Origin: Dysgonamonadaceae bacterium
Lineage (GTDB): Bacteria; Bacteroidota; Bacteroidia; Bacteroidales; Azobacteroidaceae
DNA length: 42,357 bases
Direction of reading: 5' to 3'
Assembly (NCBI GenBank): GCA_031267385.1
Contig: JAIRZF010000116.1
Coordinates: forward strand, 1 to 42,357
Numbering within the stretch: the stretch's first letter is position 1; every line of letters starts with the position of its first letter. A model generated the notes under the pieces. That model was not told the DNA's origin and did no database searches. It worked only from the letters and a program-made list of their open reading frames with translations. Shown here in pieces: positions 1,054 to 27,247 of this stretch. The position numbers were made by a program, and so were the translations under genes.

Positions 1054-4000
1054 TTATTTCAGGATCACCTTTTTTGTGGACTTTGTTTTAGAACCGTATA
1101 AGTTCAAAAGGTATGTTCCCTTCTCATTTCCGGTTATGTTGAATGATTCTTTGTAGATTGACTTTCCTTTTAATATCCTCCGTTCTATTATTTTCCCGGA
1201 TCCACTGTCTATCAGTTGAAGCGATAGGGGCGTATTGTCTTTCACTTCGATTAAAGTTTCAAAATAACCGGGGTTAGGATTCGGATGAACTGAAAATGAT
1301 CTCAATATTGGTTCATCAGCATCTTCATAACCGGAAATGTTTTCTTTGTCCATTACCTGCACCGTTTTGTAAACAGTTTCCGTGCAGTTTCCGGAATAAC
1401 TGACCATTCCGATTGTAAAATAACCATATTGCTTGAAAATCAGGTTCAGAATGTCTTCGCTGTTTTCAATCACTTCAAAAAGAGAACCTTCGCCTTCCGG
1501 TACGATCCATTCAATGCTGTCGGGGGTGGGGTCTGTGATGTTTACAACCAGGAGATTATCGTTGAGAGGGGCTTGAGAAGCAACCAGGAACTCATTCGCA
1601 ATGATCCGGTTGTCCTGTTCTACCCTGATGTTTCCGGCTCCCCGGCATCCTTTTCCGGTTATAACTTCCACTTGGTATATGCCGGGATCCGTTACAATGA
1701 TGGATTGTTTACCGGACAATTTAATCCCGGATGGATTGAACCAGGCATAAGATCTCACATCTTCGTCGATCGTAGCCGTAATTTCTCGTGATTGCCCTTC
1801 ACAAAGGACAATATCGTTTCCCAGGTCGACCACAATGCTGTCGGGCTGCGATAGCGTATAAGTGAATACTTCGTGAGCGCAATTATTGGCGTCCGTAATC
1901 GTGATGCTGTAATTTCCGGCTTGCAGGCCGTTACGGATCAGATTTTGTTGTCCGTTCTCCCATTCGTAATGATAAGGCGCCTCTCCTCCGGAAATGTCGA
2001 GCTGGATTTCTCCGTCCGACCCGTTATGGCAAGCGGGAGAGATAAGCGTTGCATTTGCCTTGATCCCGTTCAATTGGGCGATGCTGGTATTTGTTGCGAT
2101 TTCACATCCGTTTGAATCGGTTATGTATACGAAATATTTCCCTCTTGGAATATTTTCGATGCGGGAAGAAGTCTCTCCATTCGACCAGTTGAACTGATAA
2201 GGAGTTGTTCCTCCGGAGGCCTCAACCTGCGCCCATCCGTTGGTGTCGCGACTGCATCGCAAATCGGCAGCCGTAGCCGTAGCCGATAATACCTGAGGCT
2301 CTTTGAGAAAAATGAGTCCCGATTCAATGGAAATATTATTTGCATCACTGACTACAACGTAGTAATATCCTTCTCCCAGATTGGAAAGACTGTTGTCGTT
2401 CGTTCCTGTGGGCGTTCCATTTCTATACCATTGATAGCTGTAAGCCGGGACGTTATCAAAGGGGACTCCTCCTTTAGCGTGGACTTCAAACGCTCCGTCA
2501 TTACTGCCGAAACACCGGATGATCTTCGTGTTTTCGATTTCTAATTCCAGCTTTGGAGGCTCCGGCATGTAAAATGACTGATCGAACAGGCAGCCGCAAG
2601 TTGTGAAAGGCGAAGGTTGTTCCACATCTTGATACTGATTATCTTGTATGAATAAATGATAATTTCCTTCCGGAATATCCTGGATGATCGACGTTACAAT
2701 TCCATTTTCTTCACTGTCTTCACTGTCCAGGATGTCTCCGTTATCATTTTCCCAACGGATAGAATACGGTAATTCACCTCCGGAAATACTTATCCTGATG
2801 CTTCCATCGGAATATCCGAAGGCTAATGGGGGGATTATTTCTTCCGGTTTTGCAATCACCGGGATAACATCCGGTACGGTAAATATCGTGTCTCTGAAAC
2901 AACCCAGGTCATCAGTGATTCTGACGTCGTAACTCCCCGGATAAATATCGTCCAGGTAAGCCGTTGTCTCTCCATTCGACCAGGAATAGTTGTAAGGCGC
3001 TTCACCACCTGAAATGATCATGGAAATATAGGCATCTCCGTGTCCGTCGCACAAAGGAGGCCTCAGGTCATACGTGATCTGAATGGATTGGGGACTGGAA
3101 ATAAAAGTAGAATCAGTGACCTTACATCCTCCCATGTCTTCGACGGAAAGTGCATACCACCCTCCCGGTTTATTCTCGATACGGGTACTTCCGGTTTCAC
3201 CTCCGGCCCATTCATAAGTATATCCTCCCCGGCCTCCGGTAACAGTCGCCTCTACCCATCCGATGCTATCACTGGCACAGGTCAGAACAGCTGATTGAAA
3301 TTGCATCTTAAGGGCAGGCGGATTCGTCAGGGTATAGGGAGAAGAAAAGACGGAAACATTGTTCTTATCTATTACTTCCACCAGGTAAGCGCCGGATCTT
3401 ACTTCTTCAATCGTAGTCTTGTTTTCGGAACCTTCGATGAAAACCCTGCTTGCGCCTTGTTGCCGGTACCATTTATAGGAATAGGATTCTTCCGATTCAA
3501 AGGGAGTTCCTCCTTCCGCCTGAACGGAAAGTTCGCCGTCCTCTTCGTCATTACACGTGATGTGATGTGTTTCCGTAATGCTAACAATTAAAGGAGGAGG
3601 TTCCGAAATGCTGAATTCGACCGTGTATGTACATGGGTTGTAGCTGTTATCCTGGCTGGTTTGATAATTGCGATCCTGTATGAATAAGGTATAATTCCCT
3701 TCGGGTAAATTTCTTATTTCGAGGGAAGCGGCTTCTCCTTGCGGATAGAGAATCCCAGGTACGGTATAGCGGTTATCTTGTTCGTCGCTGCATGTTGCCC
3801 GGTATGGTATCGTTCCGCCTTCAATCCGGACTAAAATACTTCCGTCTTTTTTGCCGTTTTCAGAAACATTGATTAGTCGTGCAGTCGCCACAATCAACGG
3901 TTCCGGTTCGGGAACAAAAATCGTTTTGTCTATTGTTTCGCAACCGTATCTATCGGTTATGGTGACGGAATAATATCCCGAAGTAAGGTTTTGGGCATAG

Positions 4001-6285
4001 GAACTTGTTCCTCCATTGTCCCAAAGCAGGATATACTCCGGAGTTCCTCCTGAAATATTTAATTGTATACTACCGTTATTCATTCCTGCACAAGAGGGGG
4101 GCGTTATCCTTTCCGGGGCAGACATTGGCGCCGGTTCGCTTACGGTTTCATAAAATGTGTCGTGACATCCGTTTTGATCTTCGACGGAGAGTTGGTAAGT
4201 CCCGGCCGGAATATCGTTTAATTCGGCAACAGATCCGGAACCCGATAGTCCATACTCCCAATTCCAGCTGTAATTACCGGCGCCGCCCGATATGTTTGCA
4301 ACGAGCAACCCGTCTTCATCCCCGCGACATTGCAGCATACCGGTATTGAACGACACTTCCATCGGATTGGGCTGGGTCACAGTGACAATCTCAGACCAGG
4401 ATTGATTCCCCTCGCTGTCGGTTACTTTCATCCTGTATTTCCCTCCCGTTATATTGGAAATAACCGGGCTATTGTATCCCGTAGGATAATAATTCTGATA
4501 ATTATCTACCGTATACCACTCATATTTTGTATAAATACCGGATCCGCCGGAATTGATTGTCGCCGAAAGTTCCCCGTTGTTTTCCCCATAACAATGGATA
4601 TTGGCGGTTTGAGTCATTGTAATATCAAAAACGGGGAAAGCGTCCAGGAATATCGTTTCGTGAGTCCGGCATCCGTTGGCATCCGTAAATTCGACATAAT
4701 ATGTGCCTTTCCCCTGATTAGTCAGTGTGCTTATTTCATTCGTATTCCCTCCTGTTTGAATATTTGAATCAATGATCTCCCCGGATGAATTGCCTTTCCT
4801 CCAGTTGGACGTGTAGGGAGGCGTCCCGTTTTTTACCGATACGGAGATGCTTCCTGTGTTTTCTCCTTCAATCGGATTGAAAAGACTGACATTCTCAATG
4901 CTTATGGGATTCTCCGGGTTTCCGATGATTATCTTTTCCTGGAAAATATCCGTCAGGCAACCTTTTGAATCAGCGATCCAAGCATAGTATTCTCCTACCG
5001 GAAGGGCATTAATGGCGACTTCGGAATAGGAAAAACCGGATTCGAAAGTTTCCATGTCTGCGTTTTCGCAGATCAGTTTATATTCTCCGGAGCCTCCTTC
5101 TCCCTGAGCGATGACCCAGCCATCGTCGCCATCCGGACAAGTGACGCCTCCGAAATCAATCAACCGGGCGCTGGGAGGAATTCCCATATCAATATTTTCC
5201 GTAAGGGAATACTGATCGCTACCGGCTATAATTCCTGTCGATATCCGGTCTCCGTGTTGATCGATGTATGAGCCGGTGAGTTGAAATGTAATCGTTCCGG
5301 GAGGAAGATTGTAAATCCTGCACCGGTTGCCGCCAATCATTTCATGGGAAATGGAAAAGAAGAGTCCGGATCCATCTTTGCCGATCATTTCAATTGTTTC
5401 TCCGGAGAAGATACTGCGGTTGAATTCTACGATGATCTCTCCGTCGTTGTTTCCAGGACAACTTTCGTCTTTTTTCTCCAGCACGGCTTTGAATGTCGGA
5501 GCTGCAATTTTAGGTTGAAGATCAATCCGATTACTACTTTTAAATCCGTCACAATTGCAATTGATACGTATATAAACCGGCGTTTTGTACATGATTTGCT
5601 CGTAACTGAGCAGATCTGTCGCTTTCAGGGTGATTTCCGTACGATTCCCGTTCATGTACCGGTTATCCAGGGACGCCCAGCTATAGGTGTTTCCGATGGA
5701 GTATTCCCATTTATAAACACTGGTCGGATAACCGCTTGTCGCTTTTATGGAAACAGGGATGTTTTCATGAAGGAAATTGATGCCGGGAGCGTCGTCGTTC
5801 CCGTATTGAACGGAATTATGATAACTGATTTGAACGCTAACAGGTTCGATTTTTACATTGACATAGCTCCCGTTATCGTATTTCCCGATAATCTGATGAT
5901 TGAGTCTGATATTTACACAAGGATACGCCGACTCCGGGATGGCCAGATAATCACTGCCCTCGCCGACGGTATAGCAGGATTTGGGTCCGGAAGGATTATC
6001 CGCATGTATTCCAACGCACTTGACCCCGGTTATCTTCTCATTCGTGAGGAATTCTTTTGAGAAAGTCCAGGCTCTGCCTGCATCATGATTTCCATTCAAT
6101 AGGATTTCTTCGTATTTTGTACTCCCGGAACTATAATAATAGGTCATTTGCACCCGGGTGTGACATTCGAGATTTTTATCTCTACTAATGATATACCCGG
6201 TTACATTTACTTTGTATTGTTGCGAATATAAGTTGCAAAAACAAAGAAAAAATGCCGGAATGAGAAACGAAATAATTTTCTTCAT
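1054..6285 (-). CDS. Large SprB-repeat adhesin with T9SS type A C-terminal sorting domain
   Basis: Start taken at MKKIISFLIPAFFLCFCNLYSQ (signal peptide; cat at 6283-6285) rather than the ORF-track Met at 6333. Many repeats of the form C...G..DG.....GG..PY.Y.W..G...........G.Y.V.ITD..GC. C-terminus 'FSVHPNPNPGYFETLIEV...GTYLLNLYGSKTKSTKKVILK'. Confidence 0.9.
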   Translation of the reverse strand: MKKIISFLIPAFFLCFCNLYSQQYKVNVTGYIISRDKNLECHTRVQMTYYYSSGSTKYEEILLNGNHDAGRAWTFSKEFLTNEKITGVKCVGIHADNPSGPKSCYTVGEGSDYLAIPESAYPCVNIRLNHQIIGKYDNGSYVNVKIEPVSVQISYHNSVQYGNDDAPGINFLHENIPVSIKATSGYPTSVYKWEYSIGNTYSWASLDNRYMNGNRTEITLKATDLLSYEQIMYKTPVYIRINCNCDGFKSSNRIDLQPKIAAPTFKAVLEKKDESCPGNNDGEIIVEFNRSIFSGETIEMIGKDGSGLFFSISHEMIGGNRCRIYNLPPGTITFQLTGSYIDQHGDRISTGIIAGSDQYSLTENIDMGIPPSARLIDFGGVTCPDGDDGWVIAQGEGGSGEYKLICENADMETFESGFSYSEVAINALPVGEYYAWIADSKGCLTDIFQEKIIIGNPENPISIENVSLFNPIEGENTGSISVSVKNGTPPYTSNWRKGNSSGEIIDSNIQTGGNTNEISTLTNQGKGTYYVEFTDANGCRTHETIFLDAFPVFDITMTQTANIHCYGENNGELSATINSGGSGIYTKYEWYTVDNYQNYYPTGYNSPVISNITGGKYRMKVTDSEGNQSWSEIVTVTQPNPMEVSFNTGMLQCRGDEDGLLVANISGGAGNYSWNWEYGLSGSGSVAELNDIPAGTYQLSVEDQNGCHDTFYETVSEPAPMSAPERITPPSCAGMNNGSIQLNISGGTPEYILLWDNGGTSSYAQNLTSGYYSVTITDRYGCETIDKTIFVPEPEPLIVATARLINVSENGKKDGSILVRIEGGTIPYRATCSDEQDNRYTVPGILYPQGEAASLEIRNLPEGNYTLFIQDRNYQTSQDNSYNPCTYTVEFSISEPPPLIVSITETHHITCNDEEDGELSVQAEGGTPFESEESYSYKWYRQQGASRVFIEGSENKTTIEEVRSGAYLVEVIDKNNVSVFSSPYTLTNPPALKMQFQSAVLTCASDSIGWVEATVTGGRGGYTYEWAGGETGSTRIENKPGGWYALSVEDMGGCKVTDSTFISSPQSIQITYDLRPPLCDGHGDAYISMIISGGEAPYNYSWSNGETTAYLDDIYPGSYDVRITDDLGCFRDTIFTVPDVIPVIAKPEEIIPPLAFGYSDGSIRISISGGELPYSIRWENDNGDILDSEDSEENGIVTSIIQDIPEGNYHLFIQDNQYQDVEQPSPFTTCGCLFDQSFYMPEPPKLELEIENTKIIRCFGSNDGAFEVHAKGGVPFDNVPAYSYQWYRNGTPTGTNDNSLSNLGEGYYYVVVSDANNISIESGLIFLKEPQVLSATATAADLRCSRDTNGWAQVEASGGTTPYQFNWSNGETSSRIENIPRGKYFVYITDSNGCEIATNTSIAQLNGIKANATLISPACHNGSDGEIQLDISGGEAPYHYEWENGQQNLIRNGLQAGNYSITITDANNCAHEVFTYTLSQPDSIVVDLGNDIVLCEGQSREITATIDEDVRSYAWFNPSGIKLSGKQSIIVTDPGIYQVEVITGKGCRGAGNIRVEQDNRIIANEFLVASQAPLNDNLLVVNITDPTPDSIEWIVPEGEGSLFEVIENSEDILNLIFKQYGYFTIGMVSYSGNCTETVYKTVQVMDKENISGYEDADEPILRSFSVHPNPNPGYFETLIEVKDNTPLSLQLIDSGSGKIIERRILKGKSIYKESFNITGNEKGTYLLNLYGSKTKSTKKVILK

Positions 6286-6289
6286 ACGT

Positions 6290-8359
6290 CTAGTGATTAA
6301 TAATGAGTTCTTTTCTTTCGGATATTCTGCCATTAGAATAAATAGCTTGTATCTGATAATGATAAATATATCCCGTTTTTAAGTTATGGTCTGTAACAAA
6401 TAAATCTTCCGTTTCTTTCCATAAAGAGATCGGCGCTTGATTTTCCGAACGGAAAAGACGATAAGACCGGATCCTTTCACGACCGGTAACTTCCCACGAC
6501 AGGCTCAACTGTCGTTCTTCCGGATCCCATTTGTGATGAATTTTTTGTATCGCTTTAGAGGGAGCGGATAAAGATGCCGTCACTTGTAAAGCCTGACAGG
6601 GCAGCGATTCAACCCCCCATTTACTTTGCGCCGTCAAAAAGTAAACATAGGTATTGCCTCCTTCCACAGTTGTATCTTCATAAGAGGTAATGTCCGCTCC
6701 GTCAAATAGTTTCACAAGATCATATTGCAGGCTGTCTTTTTGTTTTCTGTATAGAATATGTTGAGCGCAAAATTCATCGGGACAACTGATCCATTCGAGG
6801 TATATTCCTGTTTTATCAACTCTGAAAGACGTTAAAACAGGGGATGACGGTTGGGTTTTCAAAGGTTTTTCTACTTGTAAAGGCAATGAAAATTCCGATT
6901 GATTGTATCGTTTATCCAATGCTTTTATTCTGTAATAGACGTACGGATTTAAATTATAAAGGTCTGTACTGTCTGTATAGTTGGGTTCGGGCAGTAGAGA
7001 GTCGATGATTACAACGGGTTCTTCGTCCGGGAGGTTGTATTTGAAAATACGATACCCTTCCAGATCGGCTTCATGATTGGCGTTCCAACGGATCCGGATG
7101 ATACCGGAGCTGTCGGCTTCAGCAGATAATCCGGTGGGCGCTTCCGGAGGAATAGAATCCGGAGTGATCAACATATAAGGATAGGATCCGGCACTTTTTC
7201 CATACAGCGGTTCTGCAACAATGACCAGGTAGTTGACCGGGAGCAATTCTTTGAAGAAAATGTTCCTCGTCTCTTTGGAAATATTGGAAATCAGAGGATA
7301 ATATTCTCCGGAAGAACGAGCCGATTGCATCAAAGTGAAAGAATGAATTTCATCATTGCCTTTTTCGTCGAAAGTCCATTCTATATTAGCGGTTCCATCA
7401 TCATTCACCCGACCGTTAATGATCTGGGGGACATACGGCAATACCGGTTCTCCTATTACCCGGATCGTATCGGACGGAGAGCCTGCTTCCCCGAAAGGAT
7501 TGATTCCCCGTATCCGGTAATAATAAGGTATATTGTTTTCCGGGAGGGAATCCCGGTACATCACATACCCGTCGCGTTCGTCGCCAATTGCAGCAAAAGG
7601 TTTACCCAAAGGTATAAAGTCCTGATTGTTTGATGATCGCTCAATCTGATACGCGCTGAAAAAATGTTTCATGAGTTCATTATTCCAAAATAACATGACG
7701 GAACGATCTCCTGATTCGGCATGAAGTTGGATAGGTGACGGGAGTTCTGTGATTTCTCCCGTACAACAATGATCAAATCCATAATTAACTTCCTTTCTTG
7801 CTCTTCCTGAGGCGTCAAGAGGAATTACACGGTACAGATAACATTCGTCTGGAACGACCTGATCGTCGGTAAAAGCCCATCCGGCAAGAGTTGCCGCTTC
7901 AAAACTCATGTCTGCACAGTAGAGGGCAAAGTTATATCGCTGTTCCAGTTCCAGGGTCTGATCGATCATCCCTTGTAAATTATCCGTTTTCATTCCCGTA
8001 GTCTCAAAGGAATCTCCATAAATAGCCTGGGCAATGATCGCTGCATATTCATTTTTTGTTGCCGGAATTTCCCAATCATCTAATGAGGCGGGTTTGAGTC
8101 CTTGCGACAATATTTTCTTTTCCCGTTCTTCAAGGACTTCCCCATTTCTTGAAATAGTGTAACGTTCAACGGCAAATCCATTTTGAAGACAAGATTTCCA
8201 TAAAACAGGATTATTCGCAGCCCAGCGTAATTTTATCGCTGATTCCGACGCCGATATTCGTAAACTGATTTTTGACGAATCCTGTTGATTCTGGGACATT
8301 GCCCGTATATTTACGAGTAATATCATCAGTATTATCAATTTAATGCAATTGTATTTCAT
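6290..8359 (-). CDS. Exported fibronectin type III-like domain protein
   Basis: 689 aa. N-terminal signal peptide MKYNCIKLIILMILLVNIRAMSQ. Repeated Fn3-like segments such as 'PPEAPTGLSAEADSSGIIRIRWNANHEADLEGYRIFKYN'. Stop codon lies only 4 nt from the next gene's ATG. Confidence 0.8.
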   Translation of the reverse strand: MKYNCIKLIILMILLVNIRAMSQNQQDSSKISLRISASESAIKLRWAANNPVLWKSCLQNGFAVERYTISRNGEVLEEREKKILSQGLKPASLDDWEIPATKNEYAAIIAQAIYGDSFETTGMKTDNLQGMIDQTLELEQRYNFALYCADMSFEAATLAGWAFTDDQVVPDECYLYRVIPLDASGRARKEVNYGFDHCCTGEITELPSPIQLHAESGDRSVMLFWNNELMKHFFSAYQIERSSNNQDFIPLGKPFAAIGDERDGYVMYRDSLPENNIPYYYRIRGINPFGEAGSPSDTIRVIGEPVLPYVPQIINGRVNDDGTANIEWTFDEKGNDEIHSFTLMQSARSSGEYYPLISNISKETRNIFFKELLPVNYLVIVAEPLYGKSAGSYPYMLITPDSIPPEAPTGLSAEADSSGIIRIRWNANHEADLEGYRIFKYNLPDEEPVVIIDSLLPEPNYTDSTDLYNLNPYVYYRIKALDKRYNQSEFSLPLQVEKPLKTQPSSPVLTSFRVDKTGIYLEWISCPDEFCAQHILYRKQKDSLQYDLVKLFDGADITSYEDTTVEGGNTYVYFLTAQSKWGVESLPCQALQVTASLSAPSKAIQKIHHKWDPEERQLSLSWEVTGRERIRSYRLFRSENQAPISLWKETEDLFVTDHNLKTGYIYHYQIQAIYSNGRISERKELIINH

Positions 8360-8438: not shown

Positions 8439-8473
8439 TTTCATATGTGCATAATTTGTTTTTTAAAGGTCAT
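8439..8473. repeat. 35-bp exact direct repeat, copy B (abuts the stop codon of the 1469-aa ORF)
   Basis: tttcatatgtgcataatttgttttttaaaggtcat, identical to 8354-8388 with an 85-bp period. Confidence 0.95.
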
Positions 8474-11400: not shown

Positions 11401-12882
11401 ATTCTTTGAAGGAGCAGTTAATTTCACGTCCGATATGCTCACCGGAAATCCGAATAGATTTATTTCACCGCTATATCCCATACTTTTCACCTGGATATAA
11501 GGATCAACAGTCTTTAGTATCAGGTTTGTAAATTCGATATTCTTTAAATTGGAATTGCCGGTAGTATCTTCTTTTTCCGGTTCGGTAGAACTCATAGGAT
11601 CTTTAGGATCGGCATTGATGTCCAGGTAACCGCTTAACCTGGCTTCCGGTAAGAATTTCTCATCTTTTATTTCCAGGATGACGGACGAATTCTTTTTCAG
11701 AACAGCTTTTGCCGCCAGAAAATCAAATTTAAGACTGTCTTTTAATGCAACAGACATGCTGTAATGATCATTTTCGGCTATAATTGCTTCATAATTGAGT
11801 AGCGCTTGTTTTTTGGAGACCGGTAATCCGATAAGGCCTTTGAAACCGGCGGCAGTGATCGTGTTTGATTCCAATTCCATCAGGAAGTCATCAATAGAAA
11901 AAGCCCATCCGGATGCATTTCCTATGTCGACAGGTAAAATGTTTGTTGCTGTAAACTTTCCGGAAATTCCTCTGTCGTCTATCAGCATGTCATTGGCATC
12001 AAATGAGATACGTCCTTTATCAAATGAAAAAGCTTCGGGCAGGGTAATTTTGACTTCCCGGAAATATGCACCTCTCCACAATCCCGGACTTGTTTTATCA
12101 ACCCCTTCGTATTTAGAAGGGAAACGAATAGCCGAGGGATTTTTGAAGTCGCTGAGATCGAGGGATGCGCTTTTAATGTCGAAAATAAATCCGTTCAGAC
12201 CTTTGATTGCAAACCGGGGCAGGCTTATTTCGACTAATAAGTCGTTCCAGTCCTGTACCACTGTCCGGAACGAACTGGTGACCGGTTTTCCCGTTGGTTT
12301 TCCGTTACTGCTGACTTGCTCAATCATTTTATCGGAAAATGTAATTTCTCCGCAGACTGACAACTCTTTGAATCCGACACATTCGATTTTCACATACGTC
12401 AGATTATTCATTCCGGATTCGGATTCGGGAGCCCTTCCTGTTGTTGCATCCATTCCACCTTTAAGAATGAGTTCCATACTACCGCTGATAGGTATTTTGA
12501 AATCATCCAGCAGGACGAGATAAGCGTCGCCTATAAAACTTCCTTCATAGGAAAATTTGACATTTTGTGCACCGAAGAACAAGACCTTGTCTTTTTGAGG
12601 AATTTTCATCCGGGCAAAAACAGTGAATTCGGCATGTGTCTCCAGAAATTTAATACTACTTACAGCAACGGTAAATTCACTATTACCGATAGTTTGTTTC
12701 AGTCCTACCGGAAGCGTTTGTAATTCTGAATTATTCAGTTCTTCGCAATATTTCCCGGATTGATCCAATTTCTCGAATACCTGTTCGGCTTCAGCCCGAA
12801 CGTCGGCTTTGATCTCATATGGCTTTGGAAAAAAGTTGAAAAGAACGAAAAAACAGAATGGAAGTAACATTCTTTTTTTCAT
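8473..12882 (-). CDS. Very large exported protein of unknown function in the TANFOR/SprB cluster
   Basis: Uninterrupted 1469-aa ORF with signal-peptide-like N-terminus MKKRMLLPFCFFVLFNFFPKPYEIKA. Many beta-strand-like stretches. No catalytic motif recognised. Confidence 0.8.
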   Translation of the reverse strand: MKKRMLLPFCFFVLFNFFPKPYEIKADVRAEAEQVFEKLDQSGKYCEELNNSELQTLPVGLKQTIGNSEFTVAVSSIKFLETHAEFTVFARMKIPQKDKVLFFGAQNVKFSYEGSFIGDAYLVLLDDFKIPISGSMELILKGGMDATTGRAPESESGMNNLTYVKIECVGFKELSVCGEITFSDKMIEQVSSNGKPTGKPVTSSFRTVVQDWNDLLVEISLPRFAIKGLNGFIFDIKSASLDLSDFKNPSAIRFPSKYEGVDKTSPGLWRGAYFREVKITLPEAFSFDKGRISFDANDMLIDDRGISGKFTATNILPVDIGNASGWAFSIDDFLMELESNTITAAGFKGLIGLPVSKKQALLNYEAIIAENDHYSMSVALKDSLKFDFLAAKAVLKKNSSVILEIKDEKFLPEARLSGYLDINADPKDPMSSTEPEKEDTTGNSNLKNIEFTNLILKTVDPYIQVKSMGYSGEINLFGFPVSISDVKLTAPSKNVVLGFNLSLNLDKQFIHASSRLEIKAKYITNENRHYWEYEKTDISGVKIDCTIANAVSLSGELAIMKKDPEYGDGFKGNLDMTFKKPLAGLHIKSSAIFGKKEEHRYWYVDGLAEFPQGVAIPLGPLSINGFGGGLSSGMKKESGGSFTSSGCKYIPDPQMGIGLKSAILFNIGGKAMKGDAAFEIEFYKTGGVRYLGLFGSVLFMEDLEFSNIQSKLTGKLGKLMELEKKLSSAAGSSGESNKETDRANDPDIREASKDEIKNSAVAAHMGMYYNFEQQEFHANFEIYVSLAGGIVRGVNSDNLAGSGVLHIDPSTWYLHLGTPQRPIGLQVGIPSLATVESKSYFMTGNHMPDALPPPGHVADILGEHNIGINGNSRSGSLLSKGGGFAFGSALGIETGDLDFLILYAKFYAGMGFDIMLRDYGNMQCAGHSGSIGINGWYAQGQAYAYLGGEMGVKVNLKFIKLRIPILKTGVAALLQAQLPNPIWLRGDIGAKFNLLGGLVKGDMRFKFTLGEKCNLTYPGAPPIDMILIGDMTPVDGSQKSDVFTAPQLTLTLQENREFSLDDGGARYRVLLKEFAVYEGNTQLPATIEWNKSHDVATLIPYSVLPGEKSLKVKASVVVEEWENGAWKLLSGEEKRESSFTTGKRPETIPLHNILYAYPSPGQQYFYPDESSNGYIVLRQDQSYLFEGKGSFQSQINSEGSIVGSSGFSYDYSGKKISFGLPRVSRNSSFEFNLFILNENSGSTEGGKSKEVEIFNYDSENTVTQTVKEASDVVRSGDGKSILNYPFSSSAYSTFRHKVENSNRGGLPLFEVIGNDILVLYMKKAGIEPFEDLEIRGNQGTDPLIAVEAIPEDNYYRHTIYPRLYQNYPVNGQFTLSRQDEYGIPPFKAITVSDFGADYFQYAYALPFYYFLDFKEIQRIVIDNNIKGHILNDPTRGFPVLEQGAYTISLQYWLPGREGKGSSTEFNYRR

Positions 12883-12943: not shown

Positions 12944-13363
12944 TTACAGGGCAGGGGTAATCATGAGATATATTCCCAGCGTGGTCATTAACGTATTGGC
13001 ATATATTCCCCAATAACTTATGATAATATCGTTCCTTTCCATGATATGATAAACTAAATAAGTGCAGGAAAGAATCAAAGAACAAATAAAGAATGCTATT
13101 TTAATATCAGAGTTAAATGAGACAGAAATGCAAAATATTATGTATGTATATATCAAAGATACAAACAAATATAAATAATTTTGTATTTTATAATTTTTCA
13201 AATAAGACACAATTAGAGTAAATAAGATTGAAAATATATAAAAAGGAATAATAAAAAAGACGTAATAGACAAAAATATTCGATTTTACCATTGTCATTAT
13301 TATTGTTGCAATATAAACGATACAAAATATGCTTAAATATTTGTTGTAATTTTTATTTTTCAT
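12944..13363 (-). CDS. Small polytopic membrane protein (candidate immunity/accessory protein)
   Basis: 139 aa, several hydrophobic segments (YLSIFCIVYIATIIMTMV, YVFFIIPFYIFSILFTLIVSYL, IAFFICSLILSCTYLVYHI, TLMTTLGIYLMI). AT-rich gene between two large cluster genes on the same strand. Confidence 0.7.
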   Translation of the reverse strand: MKNKNYNKYLSIFCIVYIATIIMTMVKSNIFVYYVFFIIPFYIFSILFTLIVSYLKNYKIQNYLYLFVSLIYTYIIFCISVSFNSDIKIAFFICSLILSCTYLVYHIMERNDIIISYWGIYANTLMTTLGIYLMITPAL

Positions 13364-13387: not shown

Positions 13388-14425
13388 TTATCTAATCTGG
13401 TACATTGGTCTTGGCATATAACCATGATTTTTTGTTGACCTGTATTTTCGTGATGTTTGGTAGCGTAAGTATTTTTTATTTTCTATTGTGATAGTATCGA
13501 AGAAGAATTTGTCCTGCCAAAACCCTTTTTTCATAGGGTGAAGATGTTCTTGATATTCTTCTGTTTTAAGGAAATAGTTACCCATATAATTAAAATGGGA
13601 TGAAATTACTTCATTTGTGTAAATTTCTCGGGTATATTTATCATATTGAGAGACAGGATGAGAATAGGGATAAACATCAATTCCACAATCTTTTTTTTCA
13701 CAAAATAAAACCATGCCATTGTAGTAATTTATATCAAAACTCGGTGTTGTGTTTTTGTGGGTTAATATGGCTATAAAATGTTGGCAAGAAGGAGAATACA
13801 TGATAAATTCACATTGAATGGAATTTCTGATACTGTGAAACCCTACGGTATCCGGTTCCCTATAATTATGGCTTAATAAGTCGTTAATCAAAGAGAGTCG
13901 GACAGAATCACTCATGTGTTCATCATTCTTAGCTCCTTCATCAAATGACGAAAATAAGCTCTTGATACCGTGAATTAATTTATTCTGATCTTCTAAAACG
14001 ATTTTTTTATCAGGATAAAATAGTATAGCGTTTTGTAATGTTTTTTGAGCTTCTTTTTTAACAACTTCCGCATTTTTCTTTATGCGATTAATTTCTTCTT
14101 CTATGGTTGGAGGTTTGGGACGTATAATAGACATGGAAATCTTATAATTGACAACAGATATACCAATTAATAAAATGATTAATGAAATCCATGTAATATT
14201 TTCATTTGTATATTTGTATATTAGACGAATGGAAATCCAGCATATAAAGGAAAAAAACACACATAAAGCAATGACGCGAATTTTAATGAACAGTTCTATC
14301 AAAGAGCCTGCTAGTTCAGATGTGTTTGATAGATATTTGAAACAATGAAATCCTATCAAAAGATTGACAATAAGCACTAGCCAGAAGGCTGTTTTGGCTA
14401 TCGAATTCAAATTTTCATGATCCAT
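13388..14425 (-). CDS. Membrane protein with N-terminal TM helices and C-terminal soluble domain (candidate immunity protein)
   Basis: 345 aa. Hydrophobic segments AFWLVLIVNLLIGFHCF, VIALCVFFSFICWISIRLI and ITWISLIILLIGISVVNY, then a soluble region. Located 51 bp downstream of the TANFOR-like toxin candidate. AT-rich. Confidence 0.75.
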   Translation of the reverse strand: MDHENLNSIAKTAFWLVLIVNLLIGFHCFKYLSNTSELAGSLIELFIKIRVIALCVFFSFICWISIRLIYKYTNENITWISLIILLIGISVVNYKISMSIIRPKPPTIEEEINRIKKNAEVVKKEAQKTLQNAILFYPDKKIVLEDQNKLIHGIKSLFSSFDEGAKNDEHMSDSVRLSLINDLLSHNYREPDTVGFHSIRNSIQCEFIMYSPSCQHFIAILTHKNTTPSFDINYYNGMVLFCEKKDCGIDVYPYSHPVSQYDKYTREIYTNEVISSHFNYMGNYFLKTEEYQEHLHPMKKGFWQDKFFFDTITIENKKYLRYQTSRKYRSTKNHGYMPRPMYQIR

Positions 14426-14476: not shown

Positions 14477-17400
14477 TTATTTTCGTGGTTTAATATATCC
14501 GTCTTCGATCACTTTTAATTCAAACACCCATCCATAATTGCTAATAAAATGGCTTTTAAGGAATCCCTGCGATACATCGCTTGGAATATAGGCCCGTTTA
14601 CCGTCAATTCCTCCGACAGGACACTGTGGAGCGACGCCGTCCAGTAACCAGGGTTGATCTTTCAATTTATCTTCACGGCTACCATATTGCCAAACATCTT
14701 CCCATTCAGCTGTATTTACCTCTCCACAACTTGGATTTTCCGGTGCAAAAATGTAAAGACGTCCCAAAGTTAATCCTTTTAATTCAGATTTCATGGCATT
14801 TTTAACTTCATCTATTATGCCTAAAGCGTGAGCAAATCCCATGCTATGACAAATAATATCAAGAGTATCCTGAACGATTCCGGAATCATTTTTACTACAA
14901 CTAATGCTTAATTCCTTTACAAATTCCTTGCCACTTAATCTTCCGTTTGATCGTCTGGTGTTAAAACCGTTTACATTAGGAGCGTTATTCAGTTCTACAC
15001 AAGGAGCGGAGTGATAACATGGATTAGGCAATGGTATCCCTTTTACTATAATAAAGGGTATGAGAGTGTTGTAAGAACTCACACAACTGGCGGCAAACAA
15101 TCCTATTGTTTTGTGATTGGATGTCCCAATATTATCATGTCCTGTGACATAAAATGATTCTTTTGATTTTAATAAACCGGCCATGTTTTTTGAGAAGTCA
15201 TCCCAATAATCCATTATATCAACTTCAGAGATATCTTTTCTTACAAAATTTATTGCATCCAATTTACTTTCAGGCAAGTCTTTAGTATAACTGCTATTGG
15301 GATTTATAAATTCCCAGAATTCGGATTGCCAATTATATCCTGATACGAATAACGATATGGAACCTGCCTTGTTTTGTCCCAGATATGCCAATAAAGCCAA
15401 TTGTTCTTTTTCTGTTTCGAGCATAATACGTACTCCAATGTCTTCGAATAAGATAAGATAAATCGTGTTTCCCCATCCGTCAATACTGGTATTCTTTACT
15501 AACTTGGGCTGTTTAACTGTTTTTTCAATTTCAGATATCCTGATTTTAATTGATTGATATTTTTGGCTGCCAATGTATACACCATCGCTATTTGTTTCCA
15601 GTAAACTGGCGAATATCTTAAAGGAACTTCCTTTTTGAATTGATGATTTTGTGTCTCGTAGAAACTCCAAAACTCTTTCGTTTCCACTTTTGGCCATTCC
15701 ATCCTCGTCACTCTCGAACGGATTCACCAGCCATGCCGGATCATGAATTTCGTCCCACTGCCATTTCGCAAAGTGTGTTCCTTCCCCATAATCCATCAGA
15801 TTATTTGTTTTCCCTTCCAGCGATTGTGCCGTACTGCCGTATTCGCCATCAAAAGTGTGACGTAATTTGAACATCCCGTGTCCTAATTCGTGTGCTATAG
15901 TCCGGTTGATATCTCCTCCGCTTTGGGTAAAAACATATCCGAATTGTTTCCCTCTGGGCATGTCTCCCATCATGGATTGCCCGTTGATTGAACCTTCATT
16001 GAGTATGAATATATAAGCTGTATTTTTATCCAGGCTACCTCTGGAGATCCGGTATGCAGTATTCATTTCTTTCATTTCGTCGGTATACCGGGAGAAAAAT
16101 GAACTACCCTCCGAATGAAGGTCGATGTCCGGGTATGTAAAACTGGAATCTGATTCCACATTCCATTGGATGCCTACTTTCCCGTATACGGCATTTAAAT
16201 ACTCCCCGATCTCATGTGAGTCCACATAATTTTCGTTCACAGGAATCAACCTGACATTGAAAGTTTTCTCAGGATAAGATAATATTTTCAGTTTGCCAAG
16301 GGTAAGATATCCTCCTTTCCCGTCCGGATAGAGGGCGAATAGATCCTGGGCATCATTTTCTTTTCCTCCCGCGATATGAAGTTGCCCGTCTTTCGGTTCA
16401 ATACTATAGCCTGCTTTTGTCCTGAAAATAATGCTGTCTTCATTCAGTTTTTTATCCGTTTTGTTCACTTTGAAACGGACATATTCGCTTTTGCCGGAAG
16501 GAATTAGTTGACAGGCAACAGGATATGTCCCTATAAATTCGTAAGTATTTTTGTTTACTATTAAAGAGACCGTCTTGTAATAATCCTGCCAGGTATCGAA
16601 TGAATAGCTTGAATTGTCTCCTTCTAAAAACTCCACAACAGCTTTTTGTGTAGCAATAGTCGTTTCACTGAAACTTCCTTCTGTCAGAGGTTTATCATTT
16701 TTCCCTATTTGTTCCGAAGAAGTTTTTCCGTCTTCATCCTTTGTGAAAACAACGATATTACCATCACTGTCTTCTACGATGTAGGTGTATGGATTCCCGG
16801 ATGTGAATATTTCCCGGTCTTCTTCCGGTATTTTTACTGTTCCTACGGCATTTCCATCCTTATCATTGATCACGAGGTTTCCACTATCGGCGTCATACTC
16901 AGCCGTTGCTTCATTCGGAATGGAAAAATTCGCCTTTACTTTGCTTTCTACGGCTCCGGTCTTAGTGAATCCGGTCTCGCTTCCGCCATGCCACAAACGA
17001 TCCAGATCGGCAATGAGTTTTTCATCCTTATCGTATGATGCTTCAATAGAGCCGTCAACCAGTTGATACTCTTTATTGATTTTAACGCCGGAAAACCGGA
17101 CTGCTATTTTCACAAATCCGAATAAAGGCAATGTTGTCCATCCGGTTCCGGTAAAAACGCCGTTTGAACCTTTTGATTCGATTACTGTGACCGGAAAATC
17201 TCCGGCGATGAAGACGTCTGCCGGATTTAATTTTGCCAATGGATCGAAATTGCTTTTATCAAATGAAGGGATCATACCGCAACTGATTTTGAATTTTTCT
17301 TTCCAATTTTCCAGGATAGCAGTATAAATCTCGCTGTAAGTAATGCTTCCGTCGCTGCAAACGGTTCCGACTTTGTATTCATATTCAATGTCGAAAGCCA

Positions 17401-18427
17401 AATCAAAAATACGGGCGTAATCCTGATTCCCTTTTATGACGACCCATTCGTTACCGGAATTTTTAAGCCGGTATGCCACCAATGAAATTTCAGCATTGGG
17501 TTCTGGAGTCCATTCTATGACCAAGTGATCCCTATCCTGGGAATGACGAATATTTTGCGGGGCATAACAACTTTGAGCGATGGAAAATGTATATATTTCA
17601 CTGAATCCATTGTTCTCAAAGAGACTGAGTTCATCCGCACCATCTTTTGCTATCGCCTGAACTTGCCAGGCATAACGTTTACTTTCCATCAAAGTCGGCA
17701 TCATTACGGTATAAGGTAAAGCCGTTGTCCGGATTGTTGTCGAGTAAATCTCCGGAGAATAGAGGAATCCTGCTTCCGGCGCGATGTTTTCGTCCCAAAT
17801 TTCTTTCAATATAAATTTGTATTCCACATCACTCAGATTCTGATGCCGGGGCGTCCATTGGAACAGGATGTTCTGAGCTTCCTGAAACGGCAGACTAATC
17901 CCTTTCTGTGGTAAATTAAGGATAGGCGGCCGGTTGAGGGCAATCCAGGCGCGGGCGCAGGAATTTTGGGAAATGATCTTGTTTGTTTGAACTTCTATTA
18001 CGAAAACGCAGAACTCGATCATTCCTTCCGGGAATTGGCCGTTGGGAAGTATTCCCTGGATGTTCAGGTTTTCATATTGCAGGTAAGGGCTCAGGTCGTT
18101 TTGTGTCAGCAGGTATGGGGTGCCGGATTGCAGTTGTATCACAGGATAGGAGACATGATCTTTTGTCTCCAGCCGGACGCCGTTTCCGGCTTTGATACTG
18201 AAGTGTAATTTTACATTTACCAGCGGTTCCATGAGATCCCTGTTCAATAAAGTAATGGATAGTTTGGGCTTTGCCGGGTTGTAGTAATCTTCCGGTTTGA
18301 GGCTATAGGGAGGGTTTATAAAGGCGTTCACCTGTACCGGATAAGTCAACCGCAAATTTTGAGATTGAGAGGGTAATATGCTAAAATAGAAGCAGGTGAC
18401 GAGAAGAATTAAATGATTGTATTTCAT
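14477..18427 (-). CDS. TANFOR-like exported protein with internal HELGHG metallopeptidase domain and C-terminal serine-hydrolase-like region (polymorphic-toxin-like)
   Basis: Signal peptide MKYNHLILLVTCFYFSILPSQSQ. N-terminal 'LRLTYPVQVNAFINPPYSLKPEDYYNPAKPKLSITLLNRD' resembles the Bacteroidetes TANFOR region (recalled, not searched). 'TIAHELGHGMFKLRHTF...NNLMDYGEGTHFAKWQWDEIHDP' is zincin-like. C-terminal 'DTLDIICHSMGFAHALGII' has a nucleophile-elbow-like motif. Confidence 0.85.
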   Translation of the reverse strand: MKYNHLILLVTCFYFSILPSQSQNLRLTYPVQVNAFINPPYSLKPEDYYNPAKPKLSITLLNRDLMEPLVNVKLHFSIKAGNGVRLETKDHVSYPVIQLQSGTPYLLTQNDLSPYLQYENLNIQGILPNGQFPEGMIEFCVFVIEVQTNKIISQNSCARAWIALNRPPILNLPQKGISLPFQEAQNILFQWTPRHQNLSDVEYKFILKEIWDENIAPEAGFLYSPEIYSTTIRTTALPYTVMMPTLMESKRYAWQVQAIAKDGADELSLFENNGFSEIYTFSIAQSCYAPQNIRHSQDRDHLVIEWTPEPNAEISLVAYRLKNSGNEWVVIKGNQDYARIFDLAFDIEYEYKVGTVCSDGSITYSEIYTAILENWKEKFKISCGMIPSFDKSNFDPLAKLNPADVFIAGDFPVTVIESKGSNGVFTGTGWTTLPLFGFVKIAVRFSGVKINKEYQLVDGSIEASYDKDEKLIADLDRLWHGGSETGFTKTGAVESKVKANFSIPNEATAEYDADSGNLVINDKDGNAVGTVKIPEEDREIFTSGNPYTYIVEDSDGNIVVFTKDEDGKTSSEQIGKNDKPLTEGSFSETTIATQKAVVEFLEGDNSSYSFDTWQDYYKTVSLIVNKNTYEFIGTYPVACQLIPSGKSEYVRFKVNKTDKKLNEDSIIFRTKAGYSIEPKDGQLHIAGGKENDAQDLFALYPDGKGGYLTLGKLKILSYPEKTFNVRLIPVNENYVDSHEIGEYLNAVYGKVGIQWNVESDSSFTYPDIDLHSEGSSFFSRYTDEMKEMNTAYRISRGSLDKNTAYIFILNEGSINGQSMMGDMPRGKQFGYVFTQSGGDINRTIAHELGHGMFKLRHTFDGEYGSTAQSLEGKTNNLMDYGEGTHFAKWQWDEIHDPAWLVNPFESDEDGMAKSGNERVLEFLRDTKSSIQKGSSFKIFASLLETNSDGVYIGSQKYQSIKIRISEIEKTVKQPKLVKNTSIDGWGNTIYLILFEDIGVRIMLETEKEQLALLAYLGQNKAGSISLFVSGYNWQSEFWEFINPNSSYTKDLPESKLDAINFVRKDISEVDIMDYWDDFSKNMAGLLKSKESFYVTGHDNIGTSNHKTIGLFAASCVSSYNTLIPFIIVKGIPLPNPCYHSAPCVELNNAPNVNGFNTRRSNGRLSGKEFVKELSISCSKNDSGIVQDTLDIICHSMGFAHALGIIDEVKNAMKSELKGLTLGRLYIFAPENPSCGEVNTAEWEDVWQYGSREDKLKDQPWLLDGVAPQCPVGGIDGKRAYIPSDVSQGFLKSHFISNYGWVFELKVIEDGYIKPRK
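15711..15892 (-). other. Metallopeptidase signature block within the TANFOR-like protein
   Basis: HELGHGM is encoded at 15872-15892 and NNLMDYGEGTHF at about 15771-15806 on the minus strand. The arrangement HExxH...LRHTF...NLMDY is zinc-peptidase-like. Confidence 0.75.
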
Positions 18428-18452: not shown

Positions 18453-20135
18453 TCAAAAACTATAGTTATATCCGCTTATTATGGTTAATCCGTTTGTAAT
18501 CAGTTTATTCATATTTGCTTGCATGAAATTATCCCGATAAGTAACACTTAGATTGAAACGATGTTTTTTCATCAGGGTGTATCCGGCATTGAAACGGAGA
18601 TTCCAAACCGTAGATTGCTTGTTTCCTTCCACATAATTGGCATTATGGGACACAATGAATGTAGTATTGAGTTTCTTATCAAGGAGAGGAACCGTCACGT
18701 TGAAAGTCGCTCCTCTTATCAACATTTCTTGTCCTGCTATCTGAGTTGTAGACAAGTTCAGGTTTACATTGGCCGCGATTTGCCGGGGAAGGTATTGAAA
18801 TCCATACCCCAATGATGTATTGCAAAACAGGGTCATCCCTCCTTCCGGAACAATATCGCCCTGTTTGTCGACCGCTTCCTGAAGACTGATGTTAAAGTTC
18901 AGGTTTTGTGCATTGGTTTCATTTTTTTTGAATGTATAATTTGTGGTAAATACAATGTTTTGAGAGATTTGAGTATAATTAAGAGTATCCAGGTTATCAT
19001 AAGGAGTCAGTGCATTGATATAATCGAATTGTGATTTAAGGTTCATATGTGTCTGGAAACTTGAATATCCCAGATTGAGATTCAGGTTGTCCAGAGGAGT
19101 ATAAGCAATATTTACCGATGCAATAAACCGCCGGGTTTGCGATTCTTTCGTCTTTCCCAGATCATCATGCTCGATACCTCCGCTCAAAGCAATATTTCCC
19201 TTATTTTTCAGGAAAGGGCGGGCATAGTTTAAGGTGATATTTTCCATATCATTATTAAAATAATATGCTCCCAGGGTCTTGTATCCGGGATCAATGCGTT
19301 CATAGCCGATCCCGATGGTATTATTGCCAAAAGTGTAATCCAATAATAAGCGAATCGCATGAAATTTGGAGTTTTGCATATCATTTCTCCTTATATCATT
19401 GTTCAGTATGCTGACTCCATATTCGCCGTTAAGACGCATGTTTTCAATCAATTGAATATTTCCGTTCAGGCTGACGGCCAGATTCTCTTCGGGAAAGATG
19501 AACAGACTGTCAGGATGCCGGTTCAATGAATTGATGTCATCCTTTGCCGTAAAGAGACTGGCGCCGATTTGATACTTTGATTTTTCAAACCGTATTTGAG
19601 TTCCGTACCCCATTCTTTTATACCCCGCCGGCACATTCTGATTCCCGGTTCCGTATTCAACAGCCTGCTGCATCCGTCCGTACATAGCACCGATCTTCAA
19701 AGGAGAGTTTGTTGACGTTCCAATATCAAATCCAATTCCGGTAAAAAGATGTCCATTAAGAGTATAAGGTGAAAAGTTCATGGAAACATCTCCAAAATGT
19801 CCCGTGATCCATTTGTAGTTCGGGTGTAAGGAAAACCGGTTTGGCATAGTTGGATAAGTGTAATTTGAGCCTGAGTTCGTAAAGTTGAATGTAAACGGAA
19901 TATTTGCCAGATTCATGACATTCAGGTTTACCGAACCGGTAAAGTAATAATTAAAAGGGTCGCGGGTATAAGGTTCATTCCCTGAATAGAAGACGGAATT
20001 CGCGAGGAAATTTCCGGACAATTTCAGTAAGTTCCCTTTCGAGAAATGCGCCTGTGTATTTCCGAGATCTATCTGTTGGGCGAATGTCGGAATAGACAAT
20101 GCGATGATGCAGAGTAAAAATAATATTTGTTTCAC
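18453..20135 (-). CDS. Outer-membrane beta-barrel protein
   Basis: 560 aa. Signal peptide MKQILFLLCIIALSIPTFAQ. Alternating aromatic/hydrophobic strands throughout, ending 'TNGLTIISGYNYSF' (terminal F). Confidence 0.75.
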   Translation of the reverse strand: MKQILFLLCIIALSIPTFAQQIDLGNTQAHFSKGNLLKLSGNFLANSVFYSGNEPYTRDPFNYYFTGSVNLNVMNLANIPFTFNFTNSGSNYTYPTMPNRFSLHPNYKWITGHFGDVSMNFSPYTLNGHLFTGIGFDIGTSTNSPLKIGAMYGRMQQAVEYGTGNQNVPAGYKRMGYGTQIRFEKSKYQIGASLFTAKDDINSLNRHPDSLFIFPEENLAVSLNGNIQLIENMRLNGEYGVSILNNDIRRNDMQNSKFHAIRLLLDYTFGNNTIGIGYERIDPGYKTLGAYYFNNDMENITLNYARPFLKNKGNIALSGGIEHDDLGKTKESQTRRFIASVNIAYTPLDNLNLNLGYSSFQTHMNLKSQFDYINALTPYDNLDTLNYTQISQNIVFTTNYTFKKNETNAQNLNFNISLQEAVDKQGDIVPEGGMTLFCNTSLGYGFQYLPRQIAANVNLNLSTTQIAGQEMLIRGATFNVTVPLLDKKLNTTFIVSHNANYVEGNKQSTVWNLRFNAGYTLMKKHRFNLSVTYRDNFMQANMNKLITNGLTIISGYNYSF

Positions 20136-27092: not shown

Positions 27093-27247
27093 ATGAGCAA
27101 CTGTGCCTTTCGCTAAAAAAAACGACTCAAAAAAAAACTTTTGAGACATCTTCTTTGTTTATTCCAAAATTCAAACCCTGGCCAATAAACATATCAACCG
27201 GCTAAGTGCATTGAAAGAATATTATATTCGTGAAGATCTGTTTTTTT

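What the first reader, a model, noticed from the sequence alone, without database searches (positions are those of the whole stretch)
14477..18427. TANFOR-like protein built like a polymorphic toxin: export N-terminus, internal metallopeptidase, C-terminal hydrolase-like tip
Seen: a 1316-aa exported ORF with a TANFOR-like N-terminus, then a 'HELGHGMFKLRHTF...NNLMDYGEGTHFAKWQWDEIHDP' zinc-peptidase block. After it lie ~410 aa of unrelated-looking sequence (about 14477-15710) containing 'DTLDIICHSMGFAHALGII', which resembles an alpha/beta-hydrolase nucleophile elbow. Known: in polymorphic toxin systems a peptidase is often placed just before a variable C-terminal toxin that it may release. Inference: the C-terminal tip could be a lipase/esterase-type effector exported in association with T9SS-linked surface machinery. 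I know of no description of this exact combination, but I could not search.
Basis: partly seen in the sequence, partly recalled or inferred. Interest (0 to 1): 0.82.

Follow-up and report, generated by a model that had tools for sequence, protein, structure and literature searches.

The report
Bacteroidota polymorphic toxin, lipase-like tip
A large exported protein of a Bacteroidota bacterium is a modular weapon: its export body and zinc-peptidase are shared with relatives, while its tip, a swappable lipase-like enzyme, also occurs on other toxins, usually next to a protective lipoprotein, which suggests it attacks rival cells from their periplasm.

Summary
The 14477-18427 (-) ORF is an exported trunk (TANFOR-like, Fn3, Ig-like and metzincin-like modules), a junction at aa ~911, then a tip. 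In 12 alignable relatives from the same bacterial family trunk and peptidase are kept (28-67% identity) and the tip differs (AHH nucleases, DUF5675, a PGAP1-type hydrolase, unknowns). The same tip recurs on the same trunk in 8 other distinct genomes, on RHS toxins, and as orphan fragments next to immunity genes. AlphaFold (pLDDT 81) gives an alpha/beta-hydrolase-type topology with conserved S1195/D1263/H1293; the nearest structures are lipases but none is significant. Genes just downstream of this tip family encode lipoproteins or TM proteins in all 17 cases counted, against 3/15 for other tips on the trunk, so the tip most likely acts from the target's periplasm, like T6SS Tle lipases. The window's own downstream genes are TM proteins of no known family. 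TANFOR toxins were described in 2020; this tip family, its lipoprotein partners and the constant metzincin are not in what I read. One Flavobacteriales clade has a membrane-anchored form with dead peptidase and intact hydrolase: probable domestication. Release, substrate, secretion and toxicity are inferred.

The parts
14477..18427 (-). polymorphic toxin, 1316 aa
18359..18427 (-). N-terminal Sec-type signal sequence (aa 1-23, MKYNHLILLVTCFYFSILPSQSQ), judged by eye, no predictor run
   Evidence: sequence
17528..18358 (-). divergent TANFOR-like N-terminal module (aa ~24-300), the part most widely shared with plasmid and chromosomal relatives
   Evidence: TIGR02542 not matched directly, only in homologues below cut-off
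17324..17563 (-). fibronectin type III domain (aa 289-368)
   Evidence: Pfam PF00041 27.4 bits, cut-off 25
15728..16642 (-). Ig-like domain plus metzincin-like peptidase (aa 596-900)
   Evidence: AlphaFold model pTM 0.78; Foldseek: mostly Ig domains, PAPP-A (M43) with the highest query TM-score among the listed hits; Reprolysin_4 aa 743-882
15857..15892 (-). zinc site HELGHGMFKLRH (aa 846-857)
   Evidence: HExxH plus a later His in the 24 sequences aligned (which selected for the motif); HExxH in every full-length toxin with this tip
15788..15802 (-). NLMDY, probable Met-turn (aa 876-880)
   Evidence: conserved block
15695..15724 (-). acidic junction motif NPFESDEDGM (aa 902-911), last trunk-conserved block before the tip diverges; candidate hinge or cleavage zone
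   Evidence: conservation drop after aa 911
15368..15694 (-). helix plus beta-rich spacer (aa 912-1020) present in same-tip, same-trunk toxins
14480..15367 (-). alpha/beta-hydrolase-type tip domain (aa 1021-1316)
14843..14845 (-). predicted nucleophile Ser1195 (CHSMG)
14639..14641 (-). predicted acid Asp1263 (DGVAPQ)
   Evidence: invariant column in A2
14549..14551 (-). predicted His1293 (SHFIS)
   Evidence: nearly invariant column in A2
13388..14425 (-). candidate immunity protein, 345 aa, three N-terminal TM helices plus soluble domain
   Evidence: position and hydropathy; no relatives in 48 family genomes; not of the lipoprotein family
12944..13363 (-). second candidate immunity protein, 139 aa, four TM helices, G+C 0.24
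18453..20135 (-). conserved cassette gene, 560-aa outer-membrane-barrel-like protein
   Evidence: homologues beside trunk or cassette genes in L040/L082, L045, L051, L007, L010 and, partial, L071
20168..21646 (-). conserved cassette gene, PKD-repeat protein
   Evidence: Pfam; homologues in L040, L056, L078
8473..12882 (-). conserved cassette gene, 1469-aa protein of unknown family
   Evidence: homologues in L009, L039, L054, L056, L057
6290..8359 (-). conserved cassette gene, Fn3 protein
1054..6333 (-). T9SS substrate of the cassette: SprB repeats and Por_Secre_tail sorting domain

Best explanation
This is a Bacteroidota polymorphic toxin of the TANFOR/T9SS-associated class carrying a previously unnamed alpha/beta-hydrolase toxin domain. 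Shown by sequence: the trunk, up to and including the zinc-peptidase block and an acidic junction motif, is constant, and the tip is exchanged as a cassette. Inferred: the protein is exported to the periplasm by Sec and to the cell surface with the help of the neighbouring T9SS-substrate cassette; the metzincin domain of the trunk processes the protein, probably releasing the tip near the acidic junction; in a competing Gram-negative neighbour the freed hydrolase attacks, from the periplasmic side, an ester bond in the envelope, most likely a membrane lipid (Ser1195-His1293-Asp1263). Kin would be protected by a membrane-anchored immunity protein: a lipoprotein in most relatives, and in this genome probably one of the two TM proteins encoded directly downstream.
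For: Tip swapping: 12 relatives in the same bacterial family align from aa ~1-30 (or from an internal start) to aa 895-947 only, at 28-67% identity, and their tips are unrelated: AHH nucleases (L047, L050), DUF5675 (L043), PGAP1-type hydrolase (L046), unknowns; on a Persicobacter plasmid, PT-HINT plus a further domain. Same tip elsewhere: 8 distinct genomes on the same trunk (L070, L071, L072, L074, L078, L093, L096, L102) and RHS proteins (L059, E 8e-13 pairwise; L063, L064, L065, L067). Orphan partial tips with further immunity genes in L071, L072, L078, L080, L081. G+C step at the tip. Fold: AlphaFold pLDDT 80.9, pTM 0.75, element order beta3-beta4-beta5-elbow-alphaC-beta6-beta7-His helix; best neighbours phospholipase A1, PETase, T6SS Tle1, class 3 lipases. 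Compartment: in the first set counted, the gene directly downstream of this tip family is membrane-anchored in 17/17 cases (15 lipoproteins, 2 TM) against 3/15 for other tips on the same trunk (Fisher 2e-6); later finds L093, L096, L102 also have lipoproteins. T6SS lipases show the same logic (PMC13133936: Tli lipoproteins; Tle1 toxic only with a signal sequence). Export context: SprB + Por_Secre_tail and PKD/Fn3 neighbours, the domain types enriched near TANFOR genes (PMC7073777); SprA present.
Against: The window's downstream genes are not of the lipoprotein immunity family, that family was not found in the held genome (86.75% complete), and the topology of the 345-aa protein is unresolved, so immunity in this genome is a guess. 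Foldseek gives no hit below E 0.001 and TM-scores of 0.2-0.3. Pfam gives no match for the window tip; the best match of any tip homologue is DUF900 (alpha/beta hydrolase) at 0.0012. The Fisher test counts related genes as independent. The Persicobacter relative has both the metallopeptidase and a PT-HINT domain, and two trunk proteins (L051), plus L057 which runs only ~11 residues further, end at the peptidase with no tip, so the peptidase need not be the tip-releasing protease. The toxin has no T9SS sorting domain of its own.
Confidence: 0.7

Rival explanations
1. Same modular toxin, but the metzincin is not a release protease for the tip: it matures the trunk or cuts a surface partner or target receptor, and the tip works tethered or is released by something else.
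For: Two trunk proteins stop right after the peptidase block with no tip (L051) and a third about 11 residues later (L057); one relative has an additional PT-HINT autoprotease between peptidase and toxin (L009); in the chromosomal clade the peptidase fold is kept although HExxH is lost.
Against: All full-length toxins with this tip keep HExxH, and the peptidase lies immediately before the exchange point, as releasing peptidases do in other polymorphic toxins (PMC3482391).
Confidence: 0.35
2. The tip is a periplasmic or surface esterase acting on something other than membrane lipid (peptidoglycan O-acetyl, LPS or lipoprotein acyl chains, glycan esters).
For: Structural neighbours also include carbohydrate esterases and PETase; conserved insert with a TSNH motif of unknown role between beta3 and the nucleophile; the sequence profile finds no lipase.
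Against: Highest-ranked neighbours in both structure libraries are phospholipase A1 and class 3 lipases.
Confidence: 0.3
3. Not a weapon: a secreted or surface hydrolase for nutrition or the cell's own envelope that happens to share trunk modules.
For: A Flavobacteriales clade carries the same domain pair as a membrane-anchored protein with no immunity gene seen.
Against: Tip exchange, the RHS-borne copies, orphan tip plus lipoprotein arrays and the G+C step fit toxins, and the chromosomal form falls inside the toxin sequences in the tree.
Confidence: 0.12

Closest known systems
TANFOR polymorphic toxins of Bacteroidetes (Jana, Salomon, Bosis 2020, PMC7073777)
   Same: Exported N-terminus, Fn3, exchangeable C-terminal toxin, downstream immunity genes, SprB/Fn3/PKD/Por_Secre_tail neighbours, T9SS genome.
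   Different: TIGR02542 is not matched by the window protein itself; the tip is an alpha/beta hydrolase, not among the toxin domains named in the text; the words lipase, peptidase and protease do not occur in the main text. Supplements and figures could not be read.
Tox-ABhydrolase-1/2/3 (Zhang et al. 2012, PMC3482391)
   Same: Predicted alpha/beta hydrolases, two of them lipase-like, as toxin domains of polymorphic toxins.
   Different: No Pfam or NCBIfam model matches the window tip; identity with Tox-ABhydrolase-2 or -3 could not be compared directly because their alignments were not available.
T6SS lipase effectors (Tle) with Tli immunity proteins (PMC13133936)
   Same: Tle1 (6sjl, 6ski) is among the structural neighbours; lipoprotein immunity, as in the relatives of this tip.
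   Different: Carried on a TANFOR-like or RHS trunk, no VgrG link seen; no significant sequence or structure match.
M43 pappalysins and M12B reprolysins (metzincins)
   Same: HExxH, a later His, NLMDY Met-turn-like block, metzincin-like element order; PAPP-A among the structural hits.
   Different: The third His is one residue further (HExxH-x6-H instead of HExxHxxGxxH).
Flavobacteriales pseudopeptidase-hydrolase proteins (L073, L075-L077, L079, L088-L090, L092, L062)
   Same: Same hydrolase domain with HSMG elbow, and in the five aligned in full the same Ig/peptidase fold by sequence.
   Different: HExxH lost, two TM helices between the two domains (five aligned in full), no downstream immunity gene seen; two are next to metK.

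Membership tests
TANFOR polymorphic toxins | TIGR02542 domain above its cut-off (67 bits) | tested here: not met
   No match at E<=10 for the window protein or anywhere in its genome; same-architecture homologues 21-29 bits, below cut-off.
TANFOR polymorphic toxins | Exchangeable C-terminal toxin domain behind a constant N-terminal part | tested here: met
TANFOR polymorphic toxins | Neighbourhood of T9SS substrates and T9SS in the genome | tested here: met
   SprB and Por_Secre_tail; SprA 2618 bits.
TANFOR polymorphic toxins | N-terminal Sec signal | tested here: inconclusive
   Hydrophobic signal-like start by eye; no signal predictor available.
TANFOR polymorphic toxins | Downstream cognate immunity gene | tested here: inconclusive
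   Two TM genes directly downstream, no known family; relatives have lipoproteins.
alpha/beta-hydrolase superfamily | Fold | tested here: inconclusive
   Predicted element order fits and the top-ranked hits are mostly alpha/beta hydrolases, but no Foldseek hit below 0.001.
alpha/beta-hydrolase superfamily | Conserved Ser-Asp-His | tested here: met
   S1195, D1263, H1293 columns conserved; geometry not measured, coordinates not available.
Tle / lipase effectors | Lipase activity on membrane lipids | not testable with these tools
   -
metzincins | HExxHxxGxxH/D zinc site | tested here: not met
   HELGHGMFKLRH: His at position 12, no Gly at 8.
metzincins | Profile match | tested here: met
   Reprolysin_4 23.9 bits, cut-off 22; weak adamalysin/atrolysin matches by profile, E ~0.04.
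PVC-type metallopeptidase (releasing peptidase) | Match to the family's own profile | not tested
   Only the general Pfam scan was run; it showed Fn3 and Reprolysin models only.

The most novel reading that the evidence does not exclude
A toxin turned into a cell component: in Flavobacteriales the peptidase-plus-hydrolase half of this toxin became a fixed membrane-anchored periplasmic protein. Its protease lost HExxH and kept only the fold, two TM helices were inserted, the hydrolase stayed intact, and the immunity gene was dropped. That would give a polymorphic toxin family with a traceable domestication and an enzyme whose natural envelope substrate can be found in a non-toxic setting.
Probability: 0.45. 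Interest if true: 0.68.

Novelty: new variant of a known kind. Interest (0 to 1): 0.55.

Why it matters
How T9SS-associated toxins of Bacteroidota leave the cell, are released and kill is open; the 2020 description demonstrated a DNase tip and left T9SS export as a hypothesis. A membrane-attacking tip with a lipoprotein immunity family would make the periplasmic end of delivery testable without having to cross the inner membrane of the target. The constant metzincin gives a concrete, mutable candidate for toxin release. The chromosomal pseudopeptidase form is a natural experiment on what the hydrolase acts on.

Tried and rejected
Eye-spotted likeness between the window's 345-aa protein and the lipoprotein immunity family: rejected (hmmsearch score -0.2, hhalign probability 1%). 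Lipoprotein immunity elsewhere in the genome: not found. TIGR02542 in the window protein: not found. Close tip relatives in plasmids: none. First genome-contig scan with the single tip sequence: none; the three-row alignment worked. PADLOC: no match. PDB sequence profiles for the tip: nothing credible (GrpE, insulin). Foldseek for the peptidase model was dominated by Ig-domain hits, and its five hits under 0.001 (a sialyltransferase, a dextranase) were not taken as informative.
Full report
What is there. The ORF at 14477-18427 (-) encodes 1316 aa. From the N-terminus: a signal-like stretch, a module related to TANFOR only through its homologues, an Fn3 domain (aa 289-368), an Ig-like domain and a metzincin-like peptidase (Reprolysin_4 aa 743-882; AlphaFold pTM 0.78), a short acidic block NPFESDEDGM (aa 902-911), then about 405 aa of tip.

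The trunk is constant and the tip is exchanged. In genomes of the same bacterial family, relatives align to the trunk and stop at aa 895-947. Two tandem copies in one same-genus genome are 67% identical to the window over aa 6-914 and then differ from it and from each other. Among tips on this trunk Pfam recognises AHH nucleases (L047, L050), DUF5675 (L043) and a PGAP1-type hydrolase (L046), and on a Persicobacter plasmid a PT-HINT pretoxin domain. Conservation per column falls just after the acidic block, and G+C falls from 0.43 to 0.365 at the same place and to 0.31 and 0.24 in the next two genes. Two proteins (L051) end at the peptidase block with no tip, and a third (L057) ends about 11 residues later.

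The tip is a family of its own. It was found on the same trunk in L070, L071, L072, L074, L078, L093, L096 and L102 (L094, L095 and L099 are duplicates by tree identity), at the end of RHS-type proteins (L059, L063, L064, L065, L067), and as partial orphan tips with further immunity genes (L071, L072, L078, L080, L081). No Pfam or NCBIfam model matches the window tip. AlphaFold on a 16-row alignment gives pLDDT 80.9 and pTM 0.75 with an alpha/beta-hydrolase order of elements. Foldseek gives no hit under E 0.001; the leading hits are phospholipase A1, PETase and T6SS Tle1 in the PDB and class 3 lipases among viral models. Ser1195, Asp1263 and His1293 are the conserved triad candidates.

Where it acts. 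On this trunk, tips of other kinds are mostly followed by a soluble protein without a signal (12 of 15), while this tip family is followed by a lipoprotein or TM protein in 17 of 17 cases in the first set (Fisher 2e-6, relatedness not corrected; one of the 15 lipoproteins, L064, was called by eye) and in three more found later. The other alpha/beta-hydrolase tip, L046, which was left out of the count, is followed by a five-TM protein. The lipoproteins form one family in the main group. T6SS lipase immunity proteins follow the same logic (PMC13133936). I therefore infer action from the periplasmic side of the target. The window is an exception in detail: its 345-aa and 139-aa downstream proteins have TM helices but belong to no family I could find.

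Export. The toxin lies in a cassette (1469-aa protein, Fn3 protein, SprB/Por_Secre_tail protein, PKD protein, 560-aa barrel-like protein) whose members recur next to other trunk proteins in this genome and in related and plasmid loci; the genome encodes SprA. Export through T9SS remains a hypothesis here, as in PMC7073777.

A possible domestication. In Flavobacteriales, ten sequences (L073, L075, L076, L077, L079, L088, L089, L090, L092, L062) carry the same hydrolase domain with the HSMG elbow but no HExxH. The five aligned in full (L073, L075, L076, L077, L079) show the peptidase fold with the zinc motif replaced, then two hydrophobic segments, then the hydrolase with Ser, Asp and His in place. 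L089 is shorter (735 aa) and L062, L090 and L092 are shorter still (562-578 aa); I did not check how much of the peptidase part each keeps. No lipoprotein gene follows those inspected; two are next to metK. They form one clade (100/98) placed among the toxins with moderate support (86/92 and 82/91). The direction of change rests on rooting with two long RHS branches.

What was not shown. Toxicity, substrate, autoproteolysis, secretion and immunity were not tested; supplements and figures of the 2020 paper were not readable, so this tip may be among its unnamed domains.

Noticed in passing
L073 3240-5879, L075 3246-5870, L076 3222-5873, L077 3153-5885, L079 3153-5879 (all +): Chromosomal pseudopeptidase-2TM-hydrolase proteins of Flavobacteriales; HExxH lost, hydrolase triad intact, two of them directly upstream of metK.
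   Followed up: partly
G000 contigs C312 (L054), C113 (L055), C59 (L056): The same genome carries further trunk-type toxin sequences on three other contigs, two of them with the same cassette genes.
   Followed up: partly
L009 5929-12288 (+): Relative on a Persicobacter plasmid with both the metallopeptidase region and a PT-HINT domain before its tip.
   Followed up: no
L081 993-4475 (+): Same trunk with a different tip containing GDCFAHT, followed by a four-TM 123-aa protein and then by an orphan hydrolase tip with its lipoprotein.
   Followed up: partly
L046 8930-12871 (-): Second, different alpha/beta-hydrolase tip (PGAP1/Mbeg1-like, above the Pfam cut-off) on the same trunk, followed by a five-TM 148-aa protein.
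   Followed up: partly
L051 1134-4175 (+) and 12099-15140 (-): Two trunk proteins in convergent neighbouring loci that end at the peptidase block, each followed by signal-bearing ~320-aa proteins of unknown kind.
   Followed up: partly
8473-12882 (-): 1469-aa protein with no family match that recurs in the cassette; function unknown.
   Followed up: no
27230-31363 (+): Hybrid two-component regulator with Reg_prop propeller, histidine kinase, receiver and AraC-type HTH.
   Followed up: no
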